In this document: piece after piece, positions 48,786 to 59,085 of the stretch | How positions within the stretch are numbered: the stretch's first letter is position 1 | Layout of the letters: each line of letters begins with the position of its first letter | Assembly (NCBI RefSeq): GCF_041206865.1 | Contig: NZ_JBGEDP010000001.1 | Span: 2,852,001-2,916,000 of the forward strand | Direction of reading: 5' to 3' | DNA: 64,000 nucleotides | Origin: Mycobacterium sp. HUMS_12744610 | GTDB lineage: Bacteria; Actinomycetota; Actinomycetes; Mycobacteriales; Mycobacteriaceae | Program-made: the position numbers and the translations under genes | The notes under the pieces: generated by a model | What the model was told of the DNA's origin: nothing | Database searches by the model: none | The model's input: the letters and a program-made list of their open reading frames with translations, nothing else

Positions 48786-49156
48786 CTGAGGTATACCGGT
48801 CGCGCGGTCAGCTCGGTCTGTTCGGTGGGCCAACAGCGTGTGCGATCACCGGTGGCGGCAGGCCGCAACGACCTGTTCGGCTAGGCCGGCAACCTCCGGC
48901 CGGTCGACATACGCCGCGCCGTCGAGCGACCCCGCGCCCGTGGTAACCACCGCCCGGTCCAAAATTTTGACCTGTTTGCACCTGGATAAGTTGCGGTATC
49001 GAGTTCGCGGAGTGATCCTCACCTGCCGTCTCGCAGTCATGTGGGTCTGCCCTTTCCCATCGGGCACTCTTTTTCCCGCTCCGCGCTCAAAGTAGTTGAG
49101 GCACGCCGGCGCGTTGACTCTCGACACCTTGCAATGTAACAATCGTCCACGTAGGC
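48786..49156. other. Intergenic region after eccA5
   Basis: On the minus strand a short frame (48846-49142) ends KILDRAVVTTGAGSLDGAAY and then a ...AACRHR terminus, which looks like the tail of a lost gene, but its N-terminal part is not convincing. The right part is the 5' flank of the M-box and should hold the promoter for the riboswitch transcript. Confidence 0.4.
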
Positions 49157-49315
49157 ACCTCGCTAGGTGAGGCGTCCACGCGGATACAGGCCACTGACCT
49201 CGAACGTCGAAAGACGCCCAGGGTCAGGACAGCTCTTCCCGGCTTAAGGGTTGAGCCCAAGTGGCTTTCAGCTTTGGCTGAATACGCCGTGTGGTGCCAA
49301 AGCTCTGACGAGAGG
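49157..49315 (+). ncRNA. M-box (ykoK) magnesium riboswitch
   Basis: The sequence has the diagnostic M-box segments in order: CGCTAGGTGAGGC, GGATACAGGCCACTGACC, GAAAGACGCCCAGGGTCAGG, CTTAAGGG...AAGTGGCT, and TACGCCGTGTGGTGCCAAAG followed by CTCTGACGAG. These line up with the Bacillus mgtE M-box core. The P1 stem pairs CCTCG with CGAGAGG. The aptamer folds on Mg2+ and turns expression off. M. tuberculosis is reported to have an M-box before PE20 (Rv1806), and this one precedes the PE20-type gene. The expression platform is not an obvious intrinsic terminator. Confidence 0.93.
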
Positions 49316-49409
49316 GGTGCGGCTCTCGGGCTTTACGGCTCGGTCCACACTTCTGAAGTGCCCTGACGGCATCAGCGTATGCCCCGGCCGCGAGGAGGTG
49401 AGGACTGAA

Positions 49410-49484
49410 ATGAGCCCAGGCGATAGTCCGCATCCCGAGTTCGACGACCGTTTCGATCCGATCGTGGCCGCACTGAAACCCTGA
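49410..49484 (+). CDS. Leader ORF between the M-box and the PE20-type gene
   Basis: An ATG at 49410 follows a strong GAGGAGG (49392-49398) and opens 24 codons that begin MSPGDSPHPEFDDRFDP and end AALKP then TGA. Five Pro and five Asp/Glu fall in 24 residues, and Pro is the last residue before the stop. A GTG at 49398 is in frame. It is too short for a normal protein but suits a regulatory leader peptide whose translation could respond to Mg2+ and couple the riboswitch to downstream genes. Confidence 0.6.
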   Translation: MSPGDSPHPEFDDRFDPIVAALKP

Positions 49485-49663
49485 GCGAGTTCTGAATCCG
49501 GGTCACTTGCATGCTCTGACGATGACCGCCACAGATGTGCGTAGGGAATTTTCTTGCAATTCACTTGCATGTGACACCTAAGGATTGGGTAAGCTAAGTT
49601 CCCGAGTCGGGACTCCCGGGACCTCAGCAGCCCCCCGGTCGGAACGATTTTACACGTGCGATA

Positions 49664-49681
49664 GAAACGATTGTCATTTTC
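49664..49681. promoter_or_regulatory. Zur-like metalloregulator box
   Basis: GAAACGATTGTCATTTTC is an imperfect palindrome very like mycobacterial Zur (and Fur-family) sites. It is followed by TAGGCT, a possible -10. It lies 50 bp upstream of the PE20-type ATG. It would add zinc-dependent repression to the promoter feeding the PE-PPE genes. I cannot exclude another Fur-family member. Confidence 0.55.
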
Positions 49682-49730
49682 ATCTAGGCTGCCCCCGTCG
49701 GCCGCCTAGCGGCCTGTGAGGAGACTTGGA

Positions 49731-50030
49731 ATGTTGTTCGTTACCGCGCAGCCGGAATCGTTGGCCGCTGCTGCCAATCGCCTTCAGCAGATCGGTTCGA
49801 CGTTGGCTGGCGAGCACGCCGCCACCGCCCCGCCGATGACCGGGGTGGTACCTGCCGCCTCCGACATCGTGTCGATGCTGACGGCCGCCCAGTTCGCCCG
49901 GCATGCTCAGACCTTCCAGGCATTGAGCGCCCAGGCCGCCGAAATCCACGAGAATTTCGTGGCCACATTGGCGGCTAGCGCCGGGTCGTATGCCGCCACC
50001 GAAGCAGCCAACGCCGCCGCAACCCGATGA
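49731..50030 (+). CDS. PE family protein, PE20-type
   Basis: The 99-residue PE protein starts MLFVTAQPESLAAAANRLQQIGSTLAGEHAATAPPMTGVVPAASDIVS and ends with SYAATEAANAAATR (YxxxE signal). It diverges clearly from the PE18/19 copies. It stands first after the M-box, as PE20 does in M. tuberculosis, where PE20-PPE31 is linked to magnesium uptake. TGAGGAG precedes the ATG. The PPE partner begins 18 bp later. Confidence 0.92.
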   Translation: MLFVTAQPESLAAAANRLQQIGSTLAGEHAATAPPMTGVVPAASDIVSMLTAAQFARHAQTFQALSAQAAEIHENFVATLAASAGSYAATEAANAAATR

Positions 50031-50048: not shown

Positions 50049-51224
50049 ATGCTCGACTTCGCCGCACTGCCGCCCGAAATCAATTCCGCCAAAATGTATT
50101 CCGGTCCCGGATCGGCATCGATGCTGGCAGCCGCCGGGGCGTGGAACACGATCGCCGCCGAGATGCGCTCGGCGGCAACGTCCTACAACTCGGTGATCAC
50201 GGAATTGACGAGTAACGGTTGGCTGGGCCCGTCGTCGATGTCAATGCTGTCCGCGGCCACGCCATACCTGACATGGTTGGATACGGCCGCCGCCCAAGCC
50301 GAGCAGACCGCGGCCCAAGCTTTCGCGGCCGCAACCGCTTTCGAGTCGGCGTTCGCCGCGACGGTCCCGCCGCCCGTTGTCACCGCCAATCGCGCACAGT
50401 TGGCGATGTTGGTGGCCACAAACATCTTCGGCCAGAACACCCCCGCGATCGCGGCTAACGAGGCACAGTACGCGTCCATGTGGGCCCAAGATGCCGCTGC
50501 CATGAATGGTTACGCCAGCGACTCGACGGCGGCCAGTCAATTGGCACCGCTCTCCGCTCCGTCGAAGAGCACCCAGACCTACGGGGTTGCCAAGCAATCG
50601 GCGGCGGTCGCTAAAGCGACCCAGACGACAGGTCAAACCGTGCAATCGAACCTGTCCGCGGTAACGTCGACCGCCCCCAAGGCGGCCTCCGGGGAAGACT
50701 TTCTGTCATTGCTGTCGGGGATCTTCAGTGGCGCGAACAACTCGGCCGTGGGCACGTTCATGCAAGGCAACTACTTCAGCACGATGGTCGTGAACGGGGC
50801 TTTAGCGGGTGGACCGTTCAACCCGCAATTCCTCCTTGGGACCATCGCCGGTTTCAATTTCCTGTCCGCTGCCACGCAAGGCGGCGACCTGCTACCGGGC
50901 CTCGGCGACATCGCCTCGGCGACCGCCGAGGTCTCCCCGGCGGCAGCGCTCGGCGGTGTAAGTGCCCCGATCTCAGCGGCGGTTGGCCATGCCAACCTAG
51001 TCGGTGCAGTGTCGGTGCCTCCCGGTTGGGCTTCGGCGGCAGCGATCCAGCCAGCCGACACAGCGATTCCGGCTACCGGTCTCAGTGACATCGGATCGTC
51101 CAACGGCACGGGTGGTCCGGGCGGGTTCGCCGCACCCGTCGGAGGTGCGGCGGGGCGGCGACGCCCAATCCCCAAGTACGGGTTCCGCCCCGTCGTAATT
51201 TCTCGCCCTCCGGCGGCCGGATAA
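50049..51224 (+). CDS. PPE family protein, PPE31-type (PPE-SVP)
   Basis: The 391-residue protein starts [26 protein letters not shown], has [40 protein letters not shown], and the motif GAVSVPPGW. It ends [12 protein letters not shown]. It should pair with the PE20-type protein and be secreted through ESX-5 to act as an outer-membrane pore or importer. The position right behind an M-box and Zur-like site supports a metal-uptake role (inference from the PPE31 work in M. tuberculosis). Confidence 0.92.
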
Positions 51225-51260: not shown

Positions 51261-52472
51261 ATGCTAGATTTCGCAACGTTGCCGCCAGAGATCAATTCGG
51301 CCCGCATGTACTCAGGGCCGGGCTCGGCGTCGATTAGCGTCGCTGCCGCGGCCTGGAATCGCATCGCCACCGAGATGCGTTCGACCGCAGCCGCTTACAG
51401 CGCGGTAGTCACCGGGCTGACTGACGAGGCCTGGCTGGGACCTTCGTCGGGATTGATGGCGGCAGCGGCTGAACCGTATGTCGACTGGTTGGCCATCGCC
51501 GCTGCCCAAGCCGAGCAGGCCAGCGCCTCGGCCTCTGCGGCGGCGGCCGCCTTCGAAGCCGCTTTCGCAGCGACGGTACCCCCGGCGGCGATCACGGCGA
51601 ACCGCGCCCAACTGGCTAACCTGTTGGCCACCAACATGCTCGGCCAGAACGCCGCCGTAATAGCAGCGAACGAAGCTCAATACGCCGCGATGTGGGCGCA
51701 GGATGCCGCCGCGATGAATGGCTACGCCATGGCGTCGGCCGCGGCGACACAATTGGCGCCGTTGACGCCCCCCCCTTCCACCACCAACGCCAACGAGACG
51801 GCCGACCAAGCTAATGGGACCTCGGCGTCCTCCACGGCTCCGGCAGGGTCGACGTCCGGGCTCCTCGAGTGGCTGGGTATCGCGCCCAACACCAACAACT
51901 CCACGACAGGCTTGGCCGGACTGCTCAACTTTCTGGATGGAAACAACGGGTCATTCGTCGGAAGCTTCCTCAACGATGCGACGGTCGCAAACTTCTCGAA
52001 CGCCCTCACCACCAGCGGCTTGACGAATCCAACATCCGTCATCGATTCGGTGACCGCATACAGCTTTCTCTTCGCGACCCAAGGCGCCGCCTCGTTCGAT
52101 ATGTCCGACCTGGCCGCGGGGCTGGCGTTGACAGGGCCGATCGGGGTGGCCCCGGGTCTGCCGAGCCTGTCGGCCGCGGCCGTGTCGGCTCAGCTCGGGC
52201 ACGCCAGCCTGGTCGGGGCCGTATCGGTGCCCCCGGCCTGGGGTGCGAGTGGGGCGACGGTCAACCCGGTCGCAACGGCCACGAGCCGCATCGGTGCCGG
52301 GGCCTACCACAGCCTGAGCAACGCCACCCCCATGGTGATGGAAGAGACCGGACCCGTGGGCATGCCCGGGCTGCCCCTGGCAGGCATGACCGGGCCGCAC
52401 GAGGACGAGTTCAGCGCCCCGATCTACGGATTCCGCCCCCGCATCATCACGCGGCCGCCTGCAGCGGGTTGA
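51261..52472 (+). CDS. PPE family protein (PPE-SVP), PPE31/32-like
   Basis: The 403-residue protein starts [26 protein letters not shown], with [40 protein letters not shown] and GAVSVPPAW. The C-terminal end is [12 protein letters not shown]. The N-terminal domain is close to that of the preceding PPE (shared [19 protein letters not shown]), suggesting local duplication, while the middle differs. It is 36 bp after that gene and cotranscribed. An Asn/Thr-rich linker follows the PPE domain. Confidence 0.92.
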
Positions 52473-58374: not shown

Positions 58375-59085
58375 ATGCAGACGCTGAGCGTTGCCGATTT
58401 CGCGCTCCGGCTGGCCGTCGGGGTCGGCTGCGGTGCCCTCATCGGTCTGGAGCGGCAATGGCGGGCGCGCCGGGCCGGGCTGCGCACCAACGCGCTCGTC
58501 GCCGCCGGTGCGACCCTGTTCGTGCTCTACGCGGCCGCCACCGAGGACACCAGCGCCACCCGGGTCGCGTCCTATGTCGTGTCCGGGATCGGGTTCCTGG
58601 GCGGTGGGGTGATCCTGCGCGAGGGGGTCAACGTCCGCGGGCTCAACACCGCGGCCACCCTGTGGTGTTCGGCGGCGGTCGGTGTACTGGCCGCGTCGGG
58701 ACACCTGACCTTCACGCTGATCGCCACCGGCACCGTCCTCGCGATCCACGTGTTCGGGCGCCCGCTCGGGCGGCTGATCGATCGTGACGAGAACGTCGAA
58801 GACGACGAGGGCCTCCAGCCGTACCTGCTACAGGTGACCTGCCGCCCCAAATCGGAGACGTACGCCCGCGCCCAGGTCGTGCAGCACGCCAGCAGCAACG
58901 ACATGACGCTGCGCGGTATCCACGCCCGCCAGACCGGCGACGACGAGATCACCCTGAGCGCGCATCTGCTCATGGACGGCCACACCCCGGCCAAGCTCGA
59001 GCGGTTGGTGGCCGAGCTGTCCCTGCAGCCGGGAGTCCGCACGGTGCAGTGGTACGCGGGGGAGACCGCGCAGCAGCCGGACTGA
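58375..59085 (+). CDS. mgtC: MgtC/SapB-family membrane protein
   Basis: The 236-residue protein has the MgtC N-terminal membrane domain ([88 protein letters not shown]) and a C-terminal ACT-like cytosolic domain (about residues 150-236). MgtC is needed for growth at low Mg2+ and in macrophages, where it affects membrane energetics and phosphate homeostasis. The ATG at 58375 matches the family N-terminus. It corresponds to Rv1811. It lies 9 kb downstream of the M-box, in the same direction. Confidence 0.94.
   Translation: MQTLSVADFALRLAVGVGCGALIGLERQWRARRAGLRTNALVAAGATLFVLYAAATEDTSATRVASYVVSGIGFLGGGVILREGVNVRGLNTAATLWCSAAVGVLAASGHLTFTLIATGTVLAIHVFGRPLGRLIDRDENVEDDEGLQPYLLQVTCRPKSETYARAQVVQHASSNDMTLRGIHARQTGDDEITLSAHLLMDGHTPAKLERLVAELSLQPGVRTVQWYAGETAQQPD

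What the first reader, a model, noticed from the sequence alone, without database searches (positions are those of the whole stretch)
49157..49484. M-box riboswitch followed by a Pro/Asp-rich leader peptide: a possible two-tier Mg2+ sensor for PE/PPE genes
The M-box core is clear by motif. About 95 bp after it, a GAGGAGG-led 24-codon ORF begins MSPGDSPHPEFDDRFDP and ends in a Pro codon before TGA. Acidic and Pro-rich nascent N-termini destabilise ribosomes at low Mg2+, as shown for the mgtL leader of enterobacteria, and Pro before a stop slows termination. No intrinsic terminator is visible. I infer that translation of this leader reports Mg2+ and couples, perhaps through Rho or mRNA exposure, to expression of the downstream PE/PPE genes. 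The combination of an M-box with an mgtL-like leader in one mycobacterial 5' region is the most novel regulatory layout in the window.
Basis: partly seen in the sequence, partly recalled or inferred. Interest (0 to 1): 0.8.

Follow-up and report, generated by a model that had tools for sequence, protein, structure and literature searches.

The report
Known mycobacterial M-box leader, drifted peptide
This is the mycobacterial form of a magnesium-sensing RNA switch followed by a tiny upstream gene, a layout already published for Mycobacterium tuberculosis; the acidic, proline-rich tail that suggested a second magnesium sensor was seen only in this lineage, while the family shows conserved RNA pairing inside the tiny gene that may matter more than its peptide.

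Summary
RF00380 scores 148.6 bits at 49152-49323; a GAGGAGG-led 24-codon ORF, 49410-49484, ends in Pro-TGA; no intrinsic terminator was found. The layout is in print: PMC12810186 (RNA, 2026) describes the pe20 M-box, uORF1, conserved uORF2 (Rv1805A), a translational platform and Rho termination in M. tuberculosis.

The mgtL-like reading is not supported. Of 84 uORF2 loci only this one ends in Pro; this locus and M. helveticum are the most acidic, because a frame-shifting indel replaced the family's Ser/Arg-rich tail.

New, as far as searched: in pe20/Mn-type leaders a segment inside uORF2 pairs with its own ribosome-binding site and start codon: 96.4% of cells against 42-52% slid; RNAalifold agrees; 15 further loci average 9.0 of 10 pairs. 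Against: shuffled columns still give 93.6%, native ORFs fold no more stably than recoded ones, the rv1535-type lacks it, and in this window it is predicted not to form; an upstream anti-SD helix is favoured.

The parts
49114..49143 (+). promoter-like site (TTGACT-18-AACAAT, TG before the second hexamer); predicted start of transcription just upstream of the aptamer
   Evidence: consensus scan, 1 found, shuffles mean 0.3; both hexamers unchanged in M. helveticum
49152..49323 (+). M-box (Mg2+) riboswitch aptamer, RF00380
   Evidence: 148.6 bits, full-length match
49314..49319 (+). 3' strand of aptamer helix P1 (GGGGTG), which is also part of SD1 and holds the GTG start of uORF1
   Evidence: aligned as the closing helix; coordinates
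49317..49484 (+). uORF1 frame from GTG; in this genome open and in frame through uORF2 (55 codons plus stop)
   Evidence: in-frame fusion in 7 of the 80 loci (of 84) in which a GTG was found
49340..49354 (+). upstream anti-TIR (TCGGTCCACACTTCT), pairs with SD2 and spacer 49394-49408
   Evidence: part of the minimum-energy and centroid fold; duplex -20.8 kcal/mol, z -1.83 against shuffled linkers; probability 0.68 in leader context
49368..49383 (+). small hairpin just upstream of SD2, covarying in the family (GGCAT/ATGCC here, GACAC/GTGTC in others)
   Evidence: 237 of 240 pair cells in 48 loci; slid controls 39-183 of 240
49392..49412 (+). translation initiation region of uORF2: SD2 GAGGAGG, spacer and ATG
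   Evidence: conserved in the family
49410..49484 (+). uORF2, 24 codons, homologue of the uORF2/Rv1805A family; second half in a shifted frame relative to the family
49449..49459 (+). in-ORF segment complementary to the uORF2 start region; this helix is conserved in pe20/Mn-type relatives but predicted not to form here
49731..50030 (+). PE gene (PE20-like)
   Evidence: Pfam PE
50049..51224 (+). PPE gene (PPE31-like)
   Evidence: Pfam PPE
51261..52472 (+). PPE gene (PPE32-like)
   Evidence: Pfam PPE
58375..59085 (+). ORF that reads like MgtC, downstream in the same direction; name from recall, no family scan run
   Evidence: ORF and coordinates

Best explanation
This is a pe20-type M-box leader in a Mycobacterium near M. 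helveticum. With Mg2+ bound, helix P1 of the aptamer closes and holds the end-of-aptamer strand (SD1). The upstream anti-TIR (49340-49354) is then free to pair with SD2 and the spacer of uORF2 (49394-49408), so uORF2 is not translated and Rho stops transcription in the leader. With little Mg2+ the SD1 strand is free to compete for the anti-TIR, uORF2 is translated and the PE20-PPE operon is read. Shown here: the aptamer, the ORFs, the anti-TIR helix as the predicted minimum-energy fold, and homology to the published system. Inferred from the M. tuberculosis experiments in PMC12810186: the Mg2+ response, Rho and translation. uORF2 is not an mgtL-like sensor; in this lineage its second half is a drifted, frame-shifted tail.
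For: RF00380 at 148.6 bits. The published M. tuberculosis system has the same order of parts, with Rho dependence, lacZ fusions and a translational platform (PMC12810186). The window's 112-nt linker folds with the anti-TIR paired to SD2 as the minimum-energy and centroid structure, -48.4 kcal/mol, z -1.52, 11 of 200 shuffles at least as good. The window's anti-TIR:TIR duplex is -20.8 kcal/mol, z -1.83. The uORF2 family model R1 is found in 72 of 148 genomes, and all 72 are among the 76 of 148 with an M-box (the two tables compared by eye). PE, PPE and an MgtC-like ORF lie downstream.
Against: My folding did not reproduce the switch: mean SD2 unpaired probability is 0.169 with P1 free, forced or forbidden. 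In the window the SD1:linker duplex, which should free uORF2, is weak (-11.4 kcal/mol, z +1.43). Across 82 family loci the upstream anti-TIR:TIR duplex is no stronger than with shuffled linkers (mean z -0.12; 18 of 82 below -1). Own TIRs are not favoured over other loci's TIRs in the whole set (1672 and 437 of 2000 permutations reach it), and only weakly in the pe20-type group (325 and 304 of 5000). I saw no expression data for this species. In M. tuberculosis the main termination site is upstream of uORF2, so the link between uORF2 translation and termination is open.
Confidence: 0.8

Rival explanations
1. Family-level rival: the main lock on uORF2 is not the upstream anti-TIR but a helix formed by the uORF2 start region (SD2 to AUG) with a segment inside uORF2. 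The conserved second half of uORF2 would then be an RNA element as much as a peptide.
For: 10-pair register test: mean 9.35 (17 pe20-type) and 9.61 (31 Mn-type) at the right register, at most 5.74 at the other registers from -4 to +4. 96.4% of 478 cells paired against 42.1-52.3% when slid; 19 cells changed on both sides against 7.4 in shuffles; covariation 0.307 against 0.256, 0 of 500 shuffles. RNAalifold finds it unprompted. 15 further non-rv1535-type loci average 9.0 of 10. Synonymous recoding gives 7.03 against 9.54 observed in 46 loci. Predicted with probability above 0.5 in 38 of 48 loci, the upstream helix in 3 of 48. Third codon positions are fixed, including the rare Arg codon CGA, 70 of 70.
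Against: Whole-ORF folds are less stable than recoded ones (mean z +1.50; 4 of 46 negative). Column make-up alone gives 93.6% paired cells in shuffles; only 2 of 10 pairs have both-side changes, the shuffle mean is 2.0, pair types are 12 against 12.2, and the version slid by +1 has 4 such pairs. Register +5 (and -5 in the Mn group) also scores 7.0-7.6. The rv1535-type scores only 7.06 of 10 (36 loci). In the window itself the helix has probability 0.00. The loci are related, so counts are not independent.
Confidence: 0.45
2. uORF2 makes a small protein with a job of its own (Rv1805A hypothesis of PMC12810186).
For: Start codon and Asp-Ser-Pro recur with synonymous variation (Asp GAT 64/GAC 20; Pro four codons; but the collecting pattern required DSP). 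By eye, length changes keep the frame in 46 of the 48 loci of alignment A2, all but the window and M. helveticum. Copies without an M-box occur: 9 of 20 examined loci plus L157, besides the published Rv0115A.
Against: In the window lineage half of the peptide is replaced by another frame. Loci found without the pattern break Asp-Ser-Pro: DRP, DGP, DSS, DCP, DYP, GSP. The published biofilm test found no visible effect.
Confidence: 0.35
3. One reading: uORF2 is an mgtL-like leader whose acidic, Pro-rich nascent chain senses low Mg2+ and acts through Rho.
For: The N-terminus MSP[GSD]DSPxP of many pe20/Mn-type loci has Pro 3, 7, 9 and Asp. Acidic codons in the mgtQ ORF of Salmonella are reported to destabilise ribosomes (passages of PMC8092293).
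Against: Pro before stop in 1 of 84 loci; acidic tail in 2 of 84, the two lowest net charges, arising by a frame shift. No EPDP-like motif was seen by eye in the 84 peptides. Polarity is opposite to mgtL, and the main M. tuberculosis termination site is upstream of the ORF.
Confidence: 0.07

Closest known systems
pe20 M-box - uORF1 - uORF2 (Rv1805A) leader of M. tuberculosis (PMC12810186)
   Same: M-box, SD1 at the aptamer end, anti-SD between, conserved SD2, short uORF2, then PE20-PPE genes and mgtC
   Different: here uORF1 reads in frame into uORF2 (the paper treats them as separate ORFs), and the second half of the peptide is in a shifted frame relative to the family; the M. tuberculosis letters themselves were not compared by name
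mgtL leader peptide of enterobacteria (passages of PMC11282234)
   Same: short leader ORF in the 5' region of a Mg2+-regulated gene, Rho involved
   Different: no conserved acidic/Pro motif like EPDP; opposite logic (full mgtL translation favours termination); a riboswitch is the sensor here
mgtQ small ORF of Salmonella (passages of PMC8092293)
   Same: a small ORF overlapping RNA stems that hide a ribosome-binding site; there a conserved Pro codon matters through base pairing, not through the residue
   Different: mgtQ frees the site of the next gene, mgtB; here the pairing is to the ORF's own start, and release of a downstream gene is untested
Bacillus subtilis ykoK M-box
   Same: the aptamer family
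   Different: ykoK uses an intrinsic terminator (as stated); none was found here

Membership tests
M-box riboswitch (RF00380) | match above the gathering score over the full model | tested here: met
   148.6 against 44 bits, positions 1-169
M-box riboswitch (RF00380) | Mg2+-dependent change of the RNA | not testable with these tools
   needs probing; constrained folding showed no switch
pe20-type M-box / Rv1805A leader | M-box, conserved SD2 and uORF2 upstream of PE-PPE genes | tested here: met
pe20-type M-box / Rv1805A leader | conserved N-terminus of uORF2 with Pro 7 | tested here: met
   MSPGDSP, Pro at position 7
pe20-type M-box / Rv1805A leader | family second half of the peptide | tested here: not met
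   shifted frame in the window and M. helveticum; the published account stresses the N-terminus, so this is a family trait of my alignment rather than a published criterion
pe20-type M-box / Rv1805A leader | anti-SD able to pair with SD2 or SD1 | tested here: inconclusive
   SD2 pairing strong in the window; SD1 pairing weak (z +1.43); weak family-wide
pe20-type M-box / Rv1805A leader | Rho-dependent termination in the leader | not testable with these tools
   shown for M. tuberculosis only
mgtL-like leader peptide | conserved acidic/Pro destabilising motif near the start | tested here: not met
   no EPDP-like motif seen by eye in 84 peptides; acidic tail in 2 of 84 loci
   present in the window but in 1 of 84 loci only, so not conserved
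mgtL-like leader peptide | ribosome drop-off at low Mg2+ | not testable with these tools
   needs ribosome profiling or in vitro translation

The most novel reading that the evidence does not exclude
Across pe20- and Mn-type mycobacterial M-box leaders, the small ORF carries inside its own codons a covarying segment that pairs with its Shine-Dalgarno sequence, spacer and start codon. The 'conserved peptide' of this leader would then be largely a conserved RNA lock that adds a third partner to the published two-way switch, and the lineage of this window has lost both the lock and the reading frame while keeping a strong upstream anti-SD.
Probability: 0.4. Interest if true: 0.55.

Novelty: new member of a known kind. 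Interest (0 to 1): 0.38.

Why it matters
The published report reads conservation of uORF2 as conservation of a peptide of unknown function. If part of that conservation is RNA pairing with the start region, the search for a peptide partner may be misdirected, and the lacZ results need a third pairing partner. The window's lineage is a natural test: half of the peptide changed frame while the leader stayed.

Tried and rejected
Upstream anti-TIR as a family-wide covarying helix: shuffled linkers and swapped TIRs gave no general support. Switching by constrained folding: no difference between states. Conserved structure between uORF2 and PE: z -0.26, nothing. The Zur-box-like sequence at 49664-49682 (motif from recall): no second copy within 3 mismatches in the genome. 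uORF1 as a conserved peptide: of 84 loci the stop ends at -7 in 18, +4 in 20, -6 in 2, further upstream in 33, fused in 7, and no GTG was found in 4, so neither frame nor sequence is conserved. rv1535-type loci: the in-ORF helix is not supported (7.06 of 10), and RNAalifold gives another fold. Plasmid records: 12 with a match, none covering 80% of the query; the best places cover about half of it, at the aptamer.

Biases: the 84-locus set was collected with a pattern that requires the codons of Asp-Ser-Pro, so that invariance is built in; loci found otherwise break it. The place list was cut, and only part of the M-boxes was fetched. The split between pe20- and Mn-type was made by me by hand from the peptides. 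The 20 loci were chosen because no listed M-box lay beside them; 11 of 20 had one. Codon controls use codon counts of four window genes. Two of the 48 A2 loci (window and M. helveticum) were left out; 82 of 84 loci gave a linker; the two rv1535-type loci among the 17 further loci were left out of its mean.

Full report
What is there. The window holds a full M-box aptamer at 49152-49323 (148.6 bits), preceded by a promoter-like site at 49114-49143. At its 3' end the strand of helix P1 also forms an SD with a GTG (49317). After a linker come SD2 (GAGGAGG, 49392) and a 24-codon ORF, 49410-49484. PE, PPE, PPE and a DUF732 protein follow; further downstream lie another PPE, a PPE-like ORF and an ORF that reads like MgtC (the last two named from recall).

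It is already described. PMC12810186 (RNA 2026; I read the abstract, text parts 1 to 3 of 6 and the Discussion, and searched its main text; its supplement was not seen) reports for M. tuberculosis the same order: M-box, SD1/uORF1, anti-SD, SD2/uORF2, PE20. It shows Rho-dependent premature termination and a translational platform with lacZ fusions, names uORF2 Rv1805A, and finds a homologue, Rv0115A, outside an M-box context. The words mgtL, hairpin, synonymous and covariation do not occur in its main text. My paper searches (listings seen) showed no other paper that treats this leader's uORF2 as a Mg2+ sensor or as an RNA lock; most subscription papers are not held.

The family. An RF00380 search found an M-box in 76 of 148 genomes of the genus, and three in this genome. 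A uORF2 pattern hit 51 of 148 genomes; the reversed-pattern control hit none of the 148. From fetched loci I collected 84 distinct uORF2s: 17 pe20-type, 31 Mn-type and 36 rv1535-type, by my own grouping, after the classes in the paper. A model of the SD2-uORF2 part (R1) matched 72 of 148 genomes, all of which also have an M-box (tables compared by eye).

Test of the mgtL idea. The tail of the family is Ser/Arg-rich (..TISFRSDPG..SVLSRSGSG..SVSSRSGLR). The window and M. helveticum read HPEFDD[RH]FDPIVAA instead. They have 5 acidic residues each, the most of the 84, and the lowest net charges, -3 and -5; the window alone ends in Pro. The DNA alignment with the next closest locus, L005, shows a frame-shifting indel in the middle of the ORF with the flanking letters largely conserved, and the neighbouring frame of the window reads the family-like STTVSIRS. 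The features that suggested mgtL are thus confined to one lineage in this sample. What remains is a Pro- and Asp-bearing N-terminus, MSP[GSD]DSP, in many pe20/Mn-type loci. mgtL works with EPDP near the start, and its full translation keeps the Rho site open (passages), the opposite of what a translated, Rho-protecting ORF would do.

Window-specific RNA structure. The 112 nt from SD1 to the uORF2 start fold with 49340-49354 paired to SD2 and spacer, and this helix has probability 0.68 in the leader context. That fits the published model. My constrained folding did not show switching, SD1 pairing is weak in the window, and family-wide tests of the upstream helix were weak. A small hairpin just before SD2 covaries well (237 of 240 cells; slid 39-183).

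A helix inside the ORF. Codon tables showed fixed third positions: Arg CGA 70 of 70, although CGA is 3 of 67 Arg codons in four window genes; Ser TCC 74 of 74 and 63 of 63; Ser TCG 47 of 47. This pointed to RNA. In pe20/Mn-types, ten bases near the start of the family's second half pair with the uORF2 start region through the AUG: mean 9.35 and 9.61 of 10 pairs. On alignment A2 (48 loci) 96.4% of cells pair against 42-52% when slid, and two pairs change on both sides (GC/AU/GU). RNAalifold returns the same helix plus three SD2 pairs. Fifteen further non-rv1535-type loci, not used before, average 9.0. Predicted probability exceeds 0.5 in 38 of 48 loci, against 3 of 48 for the upstream helix. 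Synonymous recoding lowers the count to 7.03 from 9.54, with at most 5% of recodings reaching the native count in 28 of 46 loci.

Against it. The whole-ORF fold is not stronger than recoded ORFs (mean z +1.50), so the ORF is not selected for stable folding overall. Shuffled columns still pair in 93.6% of cells; the number of pairs with both-side changes equals the shuffle mean (2.0) and is lower than in the version slid by +1 (4), although cells with such changes exceed the shuffles (19 against 7.4). Register +5 also scores 7.5-7.6, and register -5 scores 7.0 in Mn-types. The rv1535-type does not fit. In the window the complement is kept (9 of 10 in the count) but the helix is predicted at 0.00. 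Relatedness among the loci inflates counts. I therefore give it 0.4-0.45.

Copies without an M-box. Of 20 R1 matches chosen because no M-box was listed nearby, 11 do have one and 9 do not, also at a relaxed threshold; L157 lacks one as well. Some of these lie upstream of PE-, PPE- or Esx-like ORFs (L157, L242, L256; these names are from recall). This extends the published Rv0115A case and fits either an independent peptide or an independent RNA element.

Verdict. A new member, in another species, of a published leader, with a drifted peptide. The mgtL-like claim is not supported. The open point worth testing is whether the conserved uORF2 is an RNA lock.

Noticed in passing
49664-49682: AT-rich, roughly palindromic GAAACGATTGTCATTTTCA between uORF2 and PE20, unchanged in M. 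helveticum; resembles a Zur box from recall. No second copy within 3 mismatches in the genome.
   Followed up: partly
49554-49599: A block (TTGCAATTCACTTGCAT...GGGTAAGCTAAGT) between uORF2 and PE20 that is largely shared with M. helveticum; may be a second promoter for PE20.
   Followed up: no
L157 1219-1315; L242, L243, L244, L245, L246, L251, L255, L256, L257: uORF2-like elements without a detectable M-box, some upstream of PE-, PPE- or Esx-like ORFs.
   Followed up: partly
49317-49484: uORF1 and uORF2 form one open frame here; in 38 of 84 loci uORF1 stops in SD2 or overlaps the uORF2 start (AUGA), which would allow coupled translation.
   Followed up: partly
L087 1211-1320 (-): A TPP riboswitch (RF00059, 61.1 bits) lies on the other strand close to an M-box.
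   Followed up: no
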